A stretch of DNA of 64,000 nt from a bacterium (GTDB lineage: Bacteria > JAJVIF01), in contig JAJVIF010000001.1 in assembly GCA_022072165.1 (NCBI GenBank), forward strand, positions 62,001 through 126,000. The letters are read 5' to 3'. The notes under the pieces were generated by a model. The model was not told where the DNA came from. It did no database searches and worked only from the letters and a program-made list of their open reading frames with translations. The number at the start of each line of letters is the position of its first letter. Position 1 is the stretch's first letter. This document shows positions 147-57,588 of the stretch, one piece after another. Made by a program: the position numbers and the translations under genes.

Positions 147-3100
147 GTGAAGCTGTCACAGCACCGCTGGATCCAGGCGCTGAGCGTACTCATGGGCCTG
201 TGGGTCCTGAGCGCGCTCGCCCTCGCTGAGGGGGCCGCGGCCCGGCTCACCGGAGTGAAATATCTCGAACGAGGTGGGCAGGGGGAACTGGAACTGACCC
301 TTGATGGCCAGGCGACGGTTACCGTCGAACCTCTGGCGACCAGGGATGGCCTCCAGATTCTGCTCAGTGAGACGGATCTGGCCACTGATTTCGCTCTGCC
401 GGAACTGCCGGCAGATGCGGCAGTCGCCAACCTGACCCAGAAGGCGACCATGGAAGGCGATGCCCCGCTGGTCACACTGACCGCCCGGATCCCCAAACTG
501 GCGCTCGCTCTGGAAGATGTGAAAGTGGATGCCAGCCAGGCTGGACTTGTCCGGATCATCTGGCCCATCCCCGAGAAGGCGACCCCGTCGACTCCGGCTC
601 CCAAAGCGCCGCTGCCTGGCCCGTCGGTCGCATCGACCGATCTGCTGGCCATGACTGCGCCAGCGCCGGTGCAGTTGTCAGCGGTGGGCATTGATTCCAT
701 GCCCAATGGCGAAATGGTGGTCCTCACCACTTCTGCCCCGTTGATTCCCGTGGTCCGCGAAGCCTCCTATCCGCATCGACTGATTGTCGACCTGGAAGGA
801 GCCAAAGCTTCCGACGGGCTGTTGCAGCAGTTTAAGTACAACGACCCCGACGGGCTCATTACCCGGGTGGATGTCAATGAGGCCAATGGTGCGCTGCAGG
901 TGGTCCTGCACGTCCACGCCCACGAACGCTATGACGTCGCTGACCTCGGCAACAACCGAACCGCCATTCGGGTGTACGCCGCCCTCGCGCCGATCATCCC
1001 CGAGCTGCCCCAGGCGATTGATGAGCCGGCTCCGATGCCGGTCACGGTCGCTGCGGAGCCGACCGAGGAACCCGCGCTCCCGTCACACAATGCGGTCGCA
1101 GAAACCTCAAACGACACCACTCCGAATTCCGCAGCCATGGATGAGGCCCTGGCGCGCGCGAAGGCCCGGGCCATTCTCGAAGCTGATGGCCCCATCAATA
1201 CTCGCGGCGGGGTGACCCCGGACAAGGCGAGCCAGACCATGGCGCTGGGCATGGGCGATACCGAGCCGATGGCCGGGTCGGACCCCTACACCAGCGGTCC
1301 TGGTCTCAGCCCCCTTTCCAGCAGTGATCTGGAAGAGTATCCGGACCTCCCCATCGACATGGCTGAGTTTGGCGCGGAAGGGACCTTCGACTTCCCGAGC
1401 CTCTCTGGTGCTGCGCAAAGAGAACAGATCTCCAGTGCGATTGTCTCCCTGAACTTTGTTGGAGCCAGCTTCGTCGACGTCATGATGATCCTGGCCCAGC
1501 AAGCGGGCGTGAACTTCGTCCTGGACGCTTACTGGAACCAGACCCCCACCGGCCATGTCCGCGAGCGACAGCCGGGTGGGCCGGGGAACCAGCAGGGGGG
1601 CGGCGGCGGTGGCTTCGGTCCCGGGGGTGGCTTCGGTGGCACCCAGCAGGGGTCTGTCACGATGTTCCTCCAGGAAGTCCCCTTCGATCAGGCCTTCAAG
1701 GTGCTGATGCAGTCCAACAACCTCGACTACAAGGTCTTCCGTGACAGCCCGGATGCGGAGCCCCTGCTCTTCATCTCCACCCGTGAGCGCCTCGAAGGCG
1801 AACTCGGGCTGGGCGTGGTCCAGACTTACCAGCTCCACTACATCCCTCCGGGAGACGCCTACAACTTCCTCTATCAGATGGACCTCCTCCCCTCGACCGG
1901 TGACTTCGGCATCTGGTTCTATGGCGGTGGCGGTCAGGGCGGTGGCGGTGGTACCGGCGGTGGCGGCGGTGGTCGCGGCGGCGGCGGCGGCCAGGGTGGT
2001 GGCGGCGGCGGCGGTGGTCGCGGCGGCGGTGGTGGCGGCTTCAACATGCCCCCCATGGGCGGCGGCTACGGTGGCTTCGGCCTGAACACTGGTCAGCCCG
2101 CGGGCTTTGATCCCGCAAGCGCTCCCCCCGGCGGCTTCTATGGCGGCGTTGGTGCCTCCGGCTCCTTCTATGGCATCGTCAACCCTGGCGCATTCCAGTT
2201 CAGCGCTCCCGGTCCCATCCAGCCTATGCAGGGTGGCGGCGGCGGTGGATTTGGCGGCGGCGGCGGTGGCGGCGGCCAGGGTGGTGGCGGCGGTGGCGGC
2301 GGCCAGGGCGGCGGCGGCGGTGGTGGTGGTGGCCAGGGTGGTGGCGGTGGCCAGTACACCGCGAAGCCCGGTGCCATCGGTATCATGGCCACTAAGGAAA
2401 TGCACGAGCAGATCGCAGCCGCACTGCGCCAGATCGACAAGCCCCCGAGGCAGGTCTATGTCGAAGCGACCTTCCTGACCTTCGACGACAATCCGAATCA
2501 GGTCCCCGACGTCTTTGGCCTCGACAACTTCGGCGCCTGGGCGATCGAGACCGGCGGCGACCGCTTCCCGGTGCAGTTCGATGCCACCGGCGCCGAGGGT
2601 CTGAGCTTCTCGATCCTCCCCAAGAACCAGCGGCTCCCCTTCGATGACTTCCGTGCCCGCTATCAGTACCTCTTCTCTGACCGCAAGGCGAAGATCGTCA
2701 CCGCTCCCCGCGTGGCGGTCATCGATGGCCGGACCGCGACTGTCGGTGTCACCGAGAGCCGCCCGTTCATCATCGACGGTGGCATCATCATCGACCAGTT
2801 CGGTAACGCCGTCCCGGCTCCAGACATCGTCTTCCCGGTCCAGACCGGTACCTTCCTCACCATCACACCCTTCATCGATGACTTCGGAAACATCACCATG
2901 GGCCTGAACCCGCAGATCAACTCGCTTCTGGGTGAGCCGCAGCTCATCAACGGGAACCTGATCTTCGGTACCACGCAGACTCAGGTGAATACGACCCTCC
3001 GCCTGCGCGATGGCGAGACCATCGTGATCGGTGGTCTGACCCGCCGAGACCGCGATGTCCGACGGCAGTATGTCCCCTTCCTGGGCGACATCCCGCTCAT

Positions 3101-36006: not shown

Positions 36007-36276
36007 ATGGCCGACACCACCACCGCAACGATGCAGGATGACCCCCGTGGGTCTGCGCCACCACCGGCTGCTGCCGGGGGGGGGGCTGGTGGATGGCCGG
36101 CATTCCGCGATTACCTCCTGGAGACCAAGGCTGAGGTGAAGCGGATTACCTGGCCTGAGCAGGACCACTGGGTCAACTCGTCGGTGATCACACTCCTCAC
36201 CATCGTCGCACTCAGCGCGCTGATGGCGGTGTACAACGCGATCTTCAACCAGATCGCCGGGCTCCTGTTCGGGTAG
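36007..36276 (+). CDS. secE: Preprotein translocase subunit SecE
   Basis: Small essential subunit of the SecYEG protein-export channel. The 89-aa protein has a disordered N-terminus (to about residue 32), the conserved amphipathic helix around YLLETKAEVKRITWPEQDHW, and a single membrane helix (about 60-85). ATG 36007 is preferred over an in-frame ATG 18 nt earlier because AAGGGAGTCAGGA stands directly upstream. It precedes nusG, as in nearly all bacteria. Confidence 0.93.
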   Translation: MADTTTATMQDDPRGSAPPPAAAGGGAGGWPAFRDYLLETKAEVKRITWPEQDHWVNSSVITLLTIVALSALMAVYNAIFNQIAGLLFG

Positions 36277-53816: not shown

Positions 53817-53856
53817 CTGTAAAGCTGTCAGGGTTCGCCACGGTACGAAGCAACAG

Positions 53857-53888
53857 ACGGCGCAGCCTCGGCTGCGCCGTGTTGTTTG
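53857..53888 (+). terminator. Rho-independent terminator after fusA
   Basis: ACGGCGCAGCC (53857-53867) pairs perfectly with GGCTGCGCCGT (53870-53880), followed by GTTGTTTG. Confidence 0.8.
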
Positions 53889-53945
53889 TGGTGCTTGCTG
53901 GGAGATTGCAGCGATGACATATTGAAGCCTGTGTTATCGCTGGAG

Positions 53946-53974
53946 TTGACATGGTATTGGGGAGGTGTTATTTT
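53946..53974 (+). promoter_or_regulatory. Consensus promoter of the cysteine-rich protein gene
   Basis: TTGACA (53946-53951) and TATTTT (53969-53974) with a 17-bp spacer. The tandem repeat starts at the next base, so transcription begins inside the repeat. Confidence 0.75.
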
Positions 53975-54012
53975 CTCCCTATCTCCCTATCTCCCTATCT
54001 CCCTATCTCCCT
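53975..54012 (+). repeat. Tandem repeat, 4.75 copies of CTCCCTAT
   Basis: Four perfect copies of the 8-mer CTCCCTAT and a final CTCCCT. The array covers the expected transcription start and the first part of the leader. Pure repeats of this size often change copy number by slippage. Confidence 0.9.
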
Positions 54013-54029
54013 GCCATGGCAGGTGGGAG
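54007..54029 (+). promoter_or_regulatory. Hairpin beside the ribosome binding site
   Basis: CTCC plus CTGCCA (54007-54016) pairs with TGGCAG (54017-54022) and GGAG (54026-54029) across a three-base bulge. The ribosome site GGAGG (54031-54035) starts two bases later. Confidence 0.55.
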
Positions 54030-54041
54030 CGGAGGCAAGGC

Positions 54042-54461
54042 ATGTTAGGTAAGTCTCTGCCAGCACTGGGTTGGACCCCGTTGTTGGTACTCTGCTTTCT
54101 GCTTAGCCCGCTCCTTCAGGTCAACGCAGTCGCTGGATGCTGCTGGTTTTTGGAAGACTGCGCGACGGGCTGGTACGAGTGTGAGATCTACTGTGACGGC
54201 AGTTATCCGAACTGTATAGTCTATGAGAACTGCCAGGGCCAGGACGTGATCGGAAGTGGATGCGCAAGCGGCATCCTGTCCTGTGCTGGGCAGTACATCG
54301 AGTGCAACGGGTCCTACTTTTTGACCAGTTGCGAATGCGATCAGACTTTTGATCGCAACTCCTGCCCTCCAACTCTCACTCAGTGCATCGACGGTGATCC
54401 GCCATGCCACTGGGACATGCATTACATCCTCAAGTGCGACACGCCCAATCCTTGCTGTTAG
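54042..54461 (+). CDS. Small secreted cysteine-rich protein
   Basis: 139 aa. ATG 54042 has GGAGG 6 nt upstream; an upstream frame-open start would run through the repeat and spoil the signal peptide. The signal (MLGKSLPALGWTPLLVLCFL, cut near VNA) leaves about 110 residues with 18 cysteines, roughly one in six, and clusters such as GCCWF and NPCC. Trp, Tyr and acidic residues are common. No known motif is recognised. Such content points to many disulfides and a compact extracellular or periplasmic protein. A lipoprotein gene follows after 19 nt and is probably in the same transcript. Confidence 0.78.
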   Translation: MLGKSLPALGWTPLLVLCFLLSPLLQVNAVAGCCWFLEDCATGWYECEIYCDGSYPNCIVYENCQGQDVIGSGCASGILSCAGQYIECNGSYFLTSCECDQTFDRNSCPPTLTQCIDGDPPCHWDMHYILKCDTPNPCC

Positions 54462-54480
54462 CAAAAAGGAGTCTCCCCTG

Positions 54481-55509
54481 ATGAAGAAGCTCAATACGAC
54501 AGTCCTGCGCCTCGGCTTGGCTGCCATCCTCGCGCTGACCGCCTGCAACGCGGCGAAGGTTGCAACAGAGCACGCCCCGGTGGCTGGCAGGGAGCAGACC
54601 ACTCCCCCGACCGCCGTGGCCGGCTGGAAGCCGTCGACTGGATTTGCCCCCCTGGCAGCAGGGGAGGCGGACGCCCAGATCTTCTGGCAGGCCATGCACA
54701 CGAAGGCAGACCTCGCCGAGGCCCTGCGCCACTACTACCGGATTGAAGGGAGTTTCCCCACGGATCCTGCAGCACTGTTCGAGCGCGGCGCACTCTTTCA
54801 TGTCCCTGCCGGTGTGCCGGAAGGGGAGTCTCCTTTCGTGACGTTGGGGCCAGATGAGTTGCCGGCTGATGGGCGAACCGGTATCCGGGTCATTCCAACA
54901 GTCTGGGAGATCGTCCGGACCTCGGGCGACGCCGCTCCGATTGTCCTGGAAGTGCGTCTGGATAATCTGATCTCGATGGTCGGGAAAGAACTGACCAACA
55001 CCCCGGTCCGAAGCGCATCGAGTTTGCAGGCCGACTATGCCAGCCTCTGGGCGCAGCATCCGTTGCCCAGCGATGGAGAAGTGCAGCAGTCAGCAGAAAA
55101 GGCCGCGAACGGCTACCTCTTCGCCTCCAGTTCCTGGGAGGATGCGCAAATCCGGCTGCTGGATGTCGCACTGCGGACCCGTCTGACCACCTTCATCCAG
55201 TGTCGCGGGCGCATGCCAGCGACCTGGGAGGAAGTCCTGGCCCTGACTCAGGAGGAGCCGCTCGGTTACCAGAACCAGCGCGAGCTGGCTGCGCCGCTCA
55301 CGACTGAAACCCGGGGAGTACTGCTGAGTGTGGATAAGTCTGACCTCACCGTCCGACTGCGCCGAAAACCTGCAGTTCCCGCAGTCGACACCGTCTATCT
55401 GCGCTACCGGCTAAGCCTGGATGGCGAGGGACTGGAGCGTGCAGAAGCCGCTATGTCTGCGGCAGAGGGGTCGCAGTTCGAGCCCCTCCTGGTTGCGATG
55501 CTACATTAG
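54481..55509 (+). CDS. Lipoprotein of unknown function
   Basis: 342 aa. ATG 54481 has AAGGAG 8 nt upstream and yields a lipoprotein signal with lipobox LTAC (Cys about residue 22). The mature N-terminus is Pro/Ala rich. Two stretches, LRHYYRIEGSFPTDPAALFE and TFIQCRGRMPATWEEVLALT, resemble the helix-turn seen after the N-terminal helix of pilin-like proteins, which may indicate an internal duplication. No enzymatic motif is seen. It is the second gene of the cysteine-rich protein operon and ends at a terminator. Confidence 0.7.
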   Translation: MKKLNTTVLRLGLAAILALTACNAAKVATEHAPVAGREQTTPPTAVAGWKPSTGFAPLAAGEADAQIFWQAMHTKADLAEALRHYYRIEGSFPTDPAALFERGALFHVPAGVPEGESPFVTLGPDELPADGRTGIRVIPTVWEIVRTSGDAAPIVLEVRLDNLISMVGKELTNTPVRSASSLQADYASLWAQHPLPSDGEVQQSAEKAANGYLFASSSWEDAQIRLLDVALRTRLTTFIQCRGRMPATWEEVLALTQEEPLGYQNQRELAAPLTTETRGVLLSVDKSDLTVRLRRKPAVPAVDTVYLRYRLSLDGEGLERAEAAMSAAEGSQFEPLLVAMLH

Positions 55510-55549
55510 CTCCTCGTGCCCCAACGCTGCGCCGCAATCGAACACTCGT

Positions 55550-55580
55550 GCCCCAGCGGCTCTCGCTGGGGCTTTGCGTT
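55550..55580 (+). terminator. Rho-independent terminator
   Basis: GCCCCAGCG (55550-55558) pairs with CGCTGGGGC (55564-55572), followed by TTTGCGTTT. It closes the cysteine-rich protein and lipoprotein operon. Confidence 0.8.
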
Positions 55581-55586
55581 TCTCGC

Positions 55587-55615
55587 TTGACTCCGCAGTG
55601 CGCTCCCTCTATATT
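55587..55615 (+). promoter_or_regulatory. Promoter of a probably leaderless ArsR-family gene
   Basis: TTGACT (55587-55592) and TATATT (55610-55615) are 17 bp apart. The GTG start is 7 nt after the -10 and no ribosome site exists. Confidence 0.75.
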
Positions 55616-55622
55616 TAACCGA

Positions 55623-56024
55623 GTGGTTACTAAACCAGACAGTTCAGCAGCGACTCCCGATCCCGACGCCCTAAGCGCGGTCTTCGGCGCGCTCGCTGAT
55701 CCCACCCGACGCGCCATCCTCCGTCGCCTCAGCCAGGGCGATGCCTCGGTGAGCGAGATCGCACGTCCCTTCGCGATGTCCCTTCCTGCCGTTTCGAAAC
55801 ATCTGCGGGTGCTGGAACGAGCCGGGCTGATCCGCCGAAGTCGGCAGGCGCAGTCGCGTCCCTGCACCCTGGATGCCGCCCCGCTCAAAGCCGCAGCGGA
55901 GTGGGTCGGAACTTATCGCGAATTCTGGGAGGGGAGCCTGGATCGCTTGGATGCTTACCTCACCGAACTACAACAGCTCACAGCGCCGCTTTTGAAGGAG
56001 CCTTTCGATGACCCCGAGTCCTGA
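55623..56024 (+). CDS. ArsR-family transcriptional regulator
   Basis: Winged-helix repressor of 133 aa. It shows ALSAVFGALADPTRRAILRR, the recognition helix MSLPAVSKHLRVLERAGLI and the wing RRSRQAQSRPCTLD, as in ArsR proteins paired with AHSA1 genes. There is no metal-binding ELCVCD motif, so it is not a metal sensor of the classical kind. GTG 55623 fits the promoter; an in-frame ATG at 55548 lies within the preceding terminator. The last 17 bases overlap the next gene. Confidence 0.85.
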   Translation: MVTKPDSSAATPDPDALSAVFGALADPTRRAILRRLSQGDASVSEIARPFAMSLPAVSKHLRVLERAGLIRRSRQAQSRPCTLDAAPLKAAAEWVGTYREFWEGSLDRLDAYLTELQQLTAPLLKEPFDDPES

Positions 56025-56997
56025 TGCCCCGGTCCACTGCTACGAAGTCCAGGGCAACTGCCTGATCTTTCACCGCGACTTCGCCTTCCCCCGCGCCCTG
56101 GTCTATCAGGCCTGGACCGATTCCGCCCACCTGGACCACTGGTGGGGACCCCTGGGATTCCGCAACACCACCGAAGAGTTCGACTTCCGGGAAGGGGGCG
56201 TCTGGAAGCTGATCATGCACGGACCGGATGGCACCGACTACCCGAACCGGTTGCGGTACACCACCATCACGCCGCATGAGCGGATCGCGTACCGCCACGA
56301 TGAAGGAGGCGATGAGGATCTCCATGCCTTCGATGTAACCGTGGACTTCATCGAACTCAGCGAAGGAGGGACCCGGGTCACGATGTGTCTCGCCTTTGCC
56401 AGCCCAGAGACAGCACAACAGATCATCGAGAGTGCCGGCGCCATCGAAGGGCACCGGGGGACCATGCTCCGGCTGGAGCGATTCGTCCCCGTGCTCATCG
56501 ATCGGGAAGTCAGCACCAAGGCAGGCTTCCTCATCATGACCCGGACTCTTGCGGCTCCCAGAGACCTCGTCTGGCGCGCCTGGACTGAAGCTGGCATGCT
56601 GGCGCGCTGGTTCGGGCCGGAAGCCTTCTCGGTCCCGCACTGTACAGTCGACCTGCGGGTGGGGGGGAAATGGCATCTGGCGATGCAGGCCCCGGATGGC
56701 AACATCTTCTGGTGCGGCGGGGAGTATCGCCGCATCGAAGCGCCATCACAGTTGGTGTACCGAGACTTTTTCTCCAACGAAGCAGGTGAGATCGTCTCGC
56801 CAGAGGCATTCGGCATGCCGGACTATCCGTCGGAAAATCTGATGACAGTGGACTTCGAGGAACTCTCCGAACAGTCCACTCGGATCACCCTCACAGCATC
56901 GACCGACATCGCCATCGCCATGAAGTACATGGCGGATCTCGGCTGGAGCAGCTCACTGGTGAAACTGGAGATCCTCCTGGCAGAGCCGCTGTCCTGA
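56008..56997 (+). CDS. Double AHSA1/SRPBCC-domain protein
   Basis: 329 aa made of two related START-like domains. The first has FPRALVYQAWTDSAHLDHWW (from about residue 27) and the second APRDLVWRAWTEAGMLARWF (from about 182), so the protein is an internal duplication. This fold makes a hydrophobic ligand cavity. GAAGGAG lies about 10 nt before ATG, inside the ArsR gene. ArsR-AHSA1 pairs are common, usually with one domain. The ligand is unknown. Confidence 0.87.
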   Translation: MTPSPDAPVHCYEVQGNCLIFHRDFAFPRALVYQAWTDSAHLDHWWGPLGFRNTTEEFDFREGGVWKLIMHGPDGTDYPNRLRYTTITPHERIAYRHDEGGDEDLHAFDVTVDFIELSEGGTRVTMCLAFASPETAQQIIESAGAIEGHRGTMLRLERFVPVLIDREVSTKAGFLIMTRTLAAPRDLVWRAWTEAGMLARWFGPEAFSVPHCTVDLRVGGKWHLAMQAPDGNIFWCGGEYRRIEAPSQLVYRDFFSNEAGEIVSPEAFGMPDYPSENLMTVDFEELSEQSTRITLTASTDIAIAMKYMADLGWSSSLVKLEILLAEPLS

Positions 56998-57025
56998 CAG
57001 TCGCTTTGTTCCACCCGAAAGTGGC

Positions 57026-57055
57026 GAGCAGCGAGGCCGCTGGGCCTCGCTGCTC
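57026..57055 (+). other. Long perfect hairpin after the AHSA1 gene
   Basis: GAGCAGCGAGGCC (57026-57038) pairs with GGCCTCGCTGCTC (57043-57055) over GCTG. No T tract follows, so termination efficiency is uncertain. The rest of the 408-nt gap (56998-57405) holds the ribosomal promoter and its leader; no gene is seen. Confidence 0.65.
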
Positions 57056-57228
57056 TCGCATAGGGGGAAGACGCTCCAGGCTTTGGGATCACGATCGATT
57101 CATCCTTCGAAGTCTTTCGCGGCTCTTCTGATGCCTCGATTAGTGATGCAGAGTAGGAGCCTGCCCGTTGCCCCAGGGTTCACGAGCACGACTGTCCGGG
57201 CGACTCTTAAATTTTTCAGAATGGGGAC

Positions 57229-57257
57229 TTGCATCTCTTGTAGAGGCGCGTTATCCT
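57229..57257 (+). promoter_or_regulatory. Promoter of the rpmG-rpsJ-S10 operon with AT-rich upstream element
   Basis: TTGCAT (57229-57234) and TATCCT (57252-57257) are spaced by 17 bp. An AT-rich run TTAAATTTTT just upstream could act as an UP element. The leader is about 140 nt and includes a GTGCC/GGCAC hairpin near its start. Confidence 0.7.
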
Positions 57258-57405
57258 CCTCAGTCCGTGCCCGTAACAGGCACACTCACCCGCGGGTAAA
57301 GTGGGTCAAGGCCAGGTCTCCTGGATCCCCCCACCTGCCCCCCGCGGATCTTGCGTTGTCTGAGGGCCTAGTGCCCGCAGCCAAGGGAAAGGGGATCACC
57401 CCAGC

Positions 57406-57570
57406 ATGGCTAAGAGCGATGTCCGCCCTGTGATCCACCTGGCGTGCGAGACCTGTAAGCGTCGGAACTACCACACCGAGAAGAATCGCCGGAATACGGC
57501 GGCCAAGCTCGAGTTGAAGAAGTTCTGCCCCTTCTGCCGCAGCCATACCCTGCATAAAGAGACCAAGTAG
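57406..57570 (+). CDS. rpmG: 50S ribosomal protein L33
   Basis: 54-aa large-subunit protein. It reads [20 protein letters not shown] followed by a second pair in FCPFCRSHT, so it is the zinc-binding form with two CxxC motifs. AAGGGAAAGGGG lies upstream of ATG. L33 normally precedes secE; here it is the first gene of the S10 operon, 18 nt before rpsJ. Confidence 0.95.
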
Positions 57571-57588
57571 GCAGTCTGGGAGCGCGCG

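What the first reader, a model, noticed from the sequence alone, without database searches (positions are those of the whole stretch)
53946..54041. Repeat-tuned RNA switch candidate before a secreted protein gene
A consensus promoter runs directly into 4.75 copies of CTCCCTAT. The last copy pairs with GGAG next to the ribosome site, and every other copy offers the same CTCC(C) partner for the GGGAG and GGAGG purines. Change in copy number by slippage could shift promoter start, leader folding and ribosome access, giving heritable on-off or graded expression of a surface protein.
Basis: inference. Interest (0 to 1): 0.65.

Follow-up and report, generated by a model that had tools for sequence, protein, structure and literature searches.

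The report
Microsatellite-tuned leaders of secreted-protein operons

Summary
In detail: a perfect 39-nt CTCCCTAT array abuts the -10 of a TTGACA-17-TATTTT promoter, and a Shine-Dalgarno site and a gene for a secreted Cys-rich protein plus a lipoprotein follow. The decisive evidence is elsewhere in the genome. Paralogous or similarly organised two-gene cassettes carry other microsatellites at the same place: 8-, 9-, 10-, 12- and 17-mer arrays in the 5' leader, or AG/CT/GT arrays in the -35/-10 spacer. All nine long AG/GT arrays in the whole genome lie just upstream of exported-protein operons, eight of them directly behind a TTGAC -35, some with a spacer of exactly 17 bp. In a 39% sample, 5 of 6 clear non-coding arrays are of this kind. 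Two nearly identical duplicated leaders differ by exactly two repeat units. So this is best read as one locus of a microsatellite 'phasome' (contingency loci) controlling an orphan secretome. Slippage in a population and any effect on expression are inferred, not shown. The proposed CTCC:GGAG pairing is not special: permuted units fold the RBS equally, the effect saturates at the natural copy number, and most paralogues show no copy-number effect. The mechanism class is known (hifAB, hmw1A, uspA2); the protein families and the lineage are new.

The parts
53857..53880 (+). terminator-like hairpin after fusA, separating the cassette from the str operon
   Evidence: 10-pair stem then T-rich tail
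53946..53974 (+). sigma70-type promoter TTGACA-17-TATTTT (10/12, TG before -10)
   Evidence: paralogous cassettes have TTGAC-like promoters at the corresponding place
53974..54012 (+). perfect octamer array (CTCCCTAT x4.75, 39 nt with the preceding T) abutting the -10; probable transcription start inside copy 1
   Evidence: minus strand has five GGG tracts 5 nt apart
54007..54029 (+). leader hairpin CTCCCTGCCATGGCAGGTGGGAG formed with the last repeat copy
   Evidence: MFE fold
54031..54035 (+). Shine-Dalgarno GGAGG, 6 nt before ATG
54042..54461 (+). P0001, 139-aa secreted Cys-rich protein (Sec signal ..LLQVNA-VAGCC..)
   Evidence: 7 profile hits in own genome (8th weak, E 0.08); no Pfam/NCBIfam family
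54481..55509 (+). P0002, 342-aa lipoprotein (ALTAC lipobox), second gene of the cassette
   Evidence: 5 other members by single query and about 18 loci by profile in own genome; no Pfam or confident PDB match

Best explanation
The array is the variable element of a microsatellite contingency locus. Replication slippage would change the number of CTCCCTAT units in the initially transcribed leader of a two-gene cassette (secreted Cys-rich protein + lipoprotein). That would change leader length and its distance and pairing to the hairpin/SD, and so cause graded or switch-like, heritable changes in expression. Shown: the array, the promoter and SD, the cassette family, the placement of unrelated microsatellites at the equivalent place of about 20 exported-protein operons, and a copy-number difference between two recently duplicated leaders. 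Inferred: slippage in a living population, the effect on expression, and its direction. By folding, contraction would open the RBS and expansion would do little.
For: (1) Paralogous or similarly organised cassettes carry different arrays between promoter and start: 10-mer x3.8, 9-mers x3.7, x2.6 and x2.6, 10-mers x4.1 and x6.4, 12-mer x5.3, 17-mer x4.1. (2) Unbiased whole-genome searches for AG (16 nt) and GT (14 nt) give nine loci, all upstream of exported-protein operons. Eight follow TTGAC directly, with spacers 16, 17, 17, 17, 19, 21, 21, 25 to the most plausible -10; one reads TTGACT-17-TATAAT. (3) Unbiased 1.264-Mb sample: of six non-coding arrays of 19 nt or more (period 2-20, setting aside short GC-rich hexamers), five precede such operons (post hoc binomial 4e-13 to 1e-6 depending on the assumed target). 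(4) Direct copy-number divergence: leaders at C1:479301 and C1:480844 align with an exact 18-nt, two-unit gap in the array and near-identical flanks; AG promoters at C3:163487 and C1:1545137 differ by two units, spacer 17 against 21. (5) The same octamer is length-variable elsewhere: 4 to 14 copies between near-identical flanks in dispersed Moorena elements (L007, L045, L051, L065, L084).
Against: No second strain and no reads, so variation at this locus itself is unseen. 4.75 copies is short for a highly mutable array. Some family members lack a clear array (C1:1543411 none, C1:651587 1.8 copies, C3:107055 only A8). Folding gives only a modest copy-number effect.
Confidence: 0.75

Rival explanations
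1. One reading: CTCC(C) of each copy pairs with GGGAG/GGAGG and copy number tunes RBS occlusion.
For: The MFE at natural length pairs the last copy in the hairpin and an upstream copy with GGAGG; RBS opening cost 17.1 kcal/mol is the 91st percentile of 234 genes.
Against: Effect saturates at about 4 copies; permuted octamers close the RBS as well (rank 0.56); five of the eight other arrays change the RBS by about 1 kcal/mol or less, and the rest are not graded the same way.
Confidence: 0.15
2. Neutral microsatellites tolerated in leaders of dispensable, fast-evolving genes, with no selected switching role.
For: The genes are orphan and lineage-specific; the lineage may be slippage-prone; the same octamer forms long arrays in intergenic DNA of cyanobacteria.
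Against: Arrays are almost absent from the rest of the sampled genome; dinucleotide arrays sit exactly between TTGAC and the -10, three at 17 bp.
Confidence: 0.15
3. The array is a multi-site landing pad for an RNA- or DNA-binding regulator, as proposed for TAACTGA repeats in Beggiatoaceae (PMC4679880).
For: Repeats lie just upstream of start codons in both cases.
Against: Units differ completely between paralogues (2- to 17-mers), so no shared binding site exists.
Confidence: 0.07
4. A G-quadruplex or i-motif formed by the array (five GGG tracts 5 nt apart on the template strand) controls transcription.
For: Sequence shows the tracts directly.
Against: The dinucleotide, 12-mer and 17-mer arrays at the equivalent position lack such G-tracts.
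Confidence: 0.05

Closest known systems
Haemophilus influenzae hmw1A/hmw2A heptamer repeats (PMC8262952, PMC2651432)
   Same: 7-8-nt tandem units in the promoter/leader of a surface protein; copy number changes transcript level; paralogues and strains use different unit classes
   Different: there the array lies between two promoters and has 13-38 copies; here a single promoter, 4.75 copies, no expression data
H. influenzae hifA/hifB (TA)n promoter spacer; N. meningitidis porA poly-G spacer (PMC2651432, PMC3899988)
   Same: dinucleotide or mononucleotide repeat in the -35/-10 spacer: the architecture of the AG/CT/GT sister loci in this genome
   Different: the window's own array is downstream of the -10, not in the spacer
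Moraxella catarrhalis uspA2 (AGAT)n (PMC7302503; placed in the 5' UTR according to PMC4679880)
   Same: repeat in the leader upstream of a surface-protein gene; graded mRNA response with an optimum
   Different: tetramer, 12-20 copies; unrelated protein
Streptococcus gallolyticus pil1 GCAGA leader-peptide attenuation (PMC3894217)
   Same: leader repeat upstream of a hairpin and a surface operon
   Different: no start codon precedes or lies in the CTCCCTAT array within the predicted transcript, and no terminator in the leader
TAACTGA direct repeats of Beggiatoaceae and cyanobacteria (PMC4679880)
   Same: one short unit recurring as intergenic arrays in distant phyla, often upstream of start codons
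   Different: there one unit serves many unrelated genes; here many units serve one class of operon

Membership tests
SSR-mediated contingency (phase-variable) locus | tandem array above chance in promoter, leader or 5' coding region | tested here: met
SSR-mediated contingency (phase-variable) locus | arrays concentrated at surface/secreted-protein genes | tested here: met
   9 of 9 AG/GT arrays genome-wide; 5 of 6 arrays in a 39% sample
SSR-mediated contingency (phase-variable) locus | copy number varies between lineages or cells | tested here: inconclusive
   two-unit difference between duplicated leaders in the same genome; no strain or read data for the window locus
SSR-mediated contingency (phase-variable) locus | copy number alters expression | not testable with these tools
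   folding suggests at most a small effect
promoter-spacer phase variation (hifAB type) | repeat lies between -35 and -10 | tested here: not met
   window array is 3' of the -10; met for eight other loci of this genome
RNA switch by anti-SD repeats | repeat-SD pairing stronger than for arbitrary repeats and copy-number dependent | tested here: not met
pil1-type leader-peptide attenuation | leader ORF through the repeat plus intrinsic terminator | tested here: not met
   no start codon before or in the array within the predicted transcript; no terminator called between array and ATG

The most novel reading that the evidence does not exclude
An uncultured bacterium with no sequenced genus- or family-level relative keeps a genome-wide microsatellite phasome: about 20 operons encoding orphan secreted Cys-rich proteins and lipoproteins, each with its own repeat class, switched either by promoter-spacer length (AG/CT/GT) or by leader length (8- to 17-mers), giving combinatorial secretome variation.
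Probability: 0.6. Interest if true: 0.72.

Novelty: new member of a known kind. Interest (0 to 1): 0.6.

Why it matters
SSR phase variation is best documented in host-adapted pathogens. Here a whole exported-protein repertoire of a poorly known lineage appears to be under it, with two switching architectures side by side, and it points to a contest (host, phage, predator or competitor) in which these unknown Cys-rich proteins take part. It is testable from raw reads alone.

Tried and rejected
Orthologous leader in relatives: the only three class relatives held lack the lipoprotein family and the P0001 gene, and in G003 fusA is followed directly by tuf. The octamer in 385 genomes (own included): one other genome only. 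The octamer in viral contigs: none. Anti-SD pairing tested by copy number, paralogues and permuted units and not supported. A shared mobile element around octamer arrays: flanks in other phyla are unrelated to the window. Rho/rut idea for the C-rich RNA: considered, not general to the paralogous arrays.

Full report
Observation. Perfect period-8 runs of 39 nt do not occur by chance (longest 19 nt in 50 Markov copies of the window; expectation about 4e-12 per genome), and the array is unique in the 3.26-Mb genome. The gene encodes a 139-aa Cys-rich protein with a Sec signal, followed by a 342-aa lipoprotein. A terminator-like hairpin closes fusA upstream.

The cassette is a family. The lipoprotein has five other members by single-sequence search and about 18 loci by profile, all in this genome; the Cys-rich protein has seven profile matches, plus one weak one. 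They come as two-gene cassettes. Neither protein has a Pfam match, the lipoprotein family has no confident PDB match, and the Cys-rich family has no NCBIfam match. The lipoprotein family (profile A1 and P0002) is not found in the three other genomes of the class; the Cys-rich protein was sought there only by single sequence, without a match.

The leaders of the relatives carry other microsatellites. Beside CTCCCTAT there are GTTACCCGCT x3.8 (C2:39355-39392), CTCGCGTAC x3.7 (C1:479353-479385), CTTCGCGTA x2.6 (C1:480887-480909), AGTTCCTGC x2.6 (C1:650233-650255), CAGGTAACGG x4.1 (C1:1716550-1716590), a 17-mer x4.1 whose units each contain AAAGGAG and ATG (C1:1804372-1804441), a 12-mer x5.3 (C1:811390-811453) and CTGTTACTCG x6.4 (C3:75421-75484). 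The last two were found in a sample of the genome taken without reference to the family.

A second architecture uses dinucleotides. Searching the whole genome for AG (16 nt) and GT (14 nt) gave nine loci. All nine precede operons for small exported proteins plus lipoproteins; in eight the repeat follows TTGAC immediately and ends at a plausible -10. Examples: TTGACT-(CT)n-TATAAT with exactly 17 bp at C2:315474; TTGACA-(AG)n with 17 bp to GAATAT at C3:163530 but 21 bp at C1:1545071. A tenth, imperfect AG tract at C2:53930 has the same setting, and a short (GT)5.5 lies between -35 and -10 at C3:238709. Some of these operons (C2:551968, C2:53930, C3:163487, C4:114753) encode a different small exported protein; homology to P0001 is not shown for them or for the 811347 and 75396 genes, only the shared organisation.

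Enrichment. In 1.264 Mb taken at roughly regular intervals (the window and its neighbours included), six non-coding arrays of 19 nt or more (period 2-20, homopolymers, coding repeats and short GC-rich hexamer repeats set aside) were found; five precede such operons, and the sixth is a GC-rich 20-mer. Binomial estimates depend on an assumed target size and were made after seeing the data, so they are indicative only. The dinucleotide search is the cleaner test, because it did not use the family.

Evidence of length change. The leaders at C1:479301 and C1:480844 are duplicates that align closely except for one 18-nt gap that removes exactly two repeat units. In the cyanobacterium Moorena, near-identical flanks surround 4 to 14 copies of the same CTCCCTAT unit.

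Mechanism. The array lies after the -10, so copy number changes leader length, not promoter spacing. The proposed pairing of CTCC with GGGAG/GGAGG is visible in the fold. But opening the RBS costs 15.3 kcal/mol with one copy, 17.1 with the natural four and 17.6 with ten. In five of the eight other arrays the change is about 1 kcal/mol or less, and the rest are irregular. Arrays of permuted octamers close the RBS equally (natural rank 0.56). I therefore favour a leader-length or initial-transcript effect that does not depend on the unit's sequence; that step is inference.

Comparison. Spacer repeats are the hifAB/porA type (PMC2651432, PMC3899988); leader repeats resemble hmw1A, where more heptamers mean less transcript (PMC8262952), and uspA2 (PMC7302503; in the 5' UTR according to PMC4679880). 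H. influenzae hmw and YadA-type genes also use different repeat classes in different strains and loci (PMC2651432). So the kind is known; the proteins, the lineage and the breadth within one genome are new. Whether the locus is truly phase variable remains to be shown from reads or strains.

Noticed in passing
L006-L084: Exact arrays of the same octamer CTCCCTAT (4.6 to 25 copies) recur in Cyanobacteria (Moorena, Calothrix, Pleurocapsales, Anabaena, Microcystis), a Planctomycetota MAG, Chloroflexus, Aeromonas, Pandoraea and a Syntrophaceae MAG, often mixed with CTCCCCAT, with unrelated flanks; why this unit recurs is unexplained.
   Followed up: partly
L148, G000 C1:1804372-1804441: 17-mer repeat x4.1 in which every unit contains an SD-like AAAGGAG and an ATG; 17 is not a multiple of 3, so copy number changes which ATG is in frame.
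   Followed up: partly
window 53817-57588: In the class relative G003 fusA is followed by tuf; here the cassette, an ArsR-type regulator and a two-domain AHSA1 protein lie between fusA and rpsJ.
   Followed up: partly
window 36076-36085: G10 homopolymer; G11 at C3:27449 and C12 at C2:241841 also occur and could be further contingency tracts.
   Followed up: no
L087, G000 C1:24245-24350: GC-rich 20-mer CAGCGACCGGGGGCTCTGCT x5.3 in an intergenic region, not linked to the cassette family; similar GC-rich words appear upstream of C1:1716700.
   Followed up: no
window 1922-2351: Long GGC-rich tandem repeats of period 3-27; not examined further.
   Followed up: no
L217, L218, L233, L238: A second type of small exported protein with a downstream lipoprotein also sits behind AG/GT promoter-spacer repeats, so the switch is not limited to the P0001 family.
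   Followed up: partly
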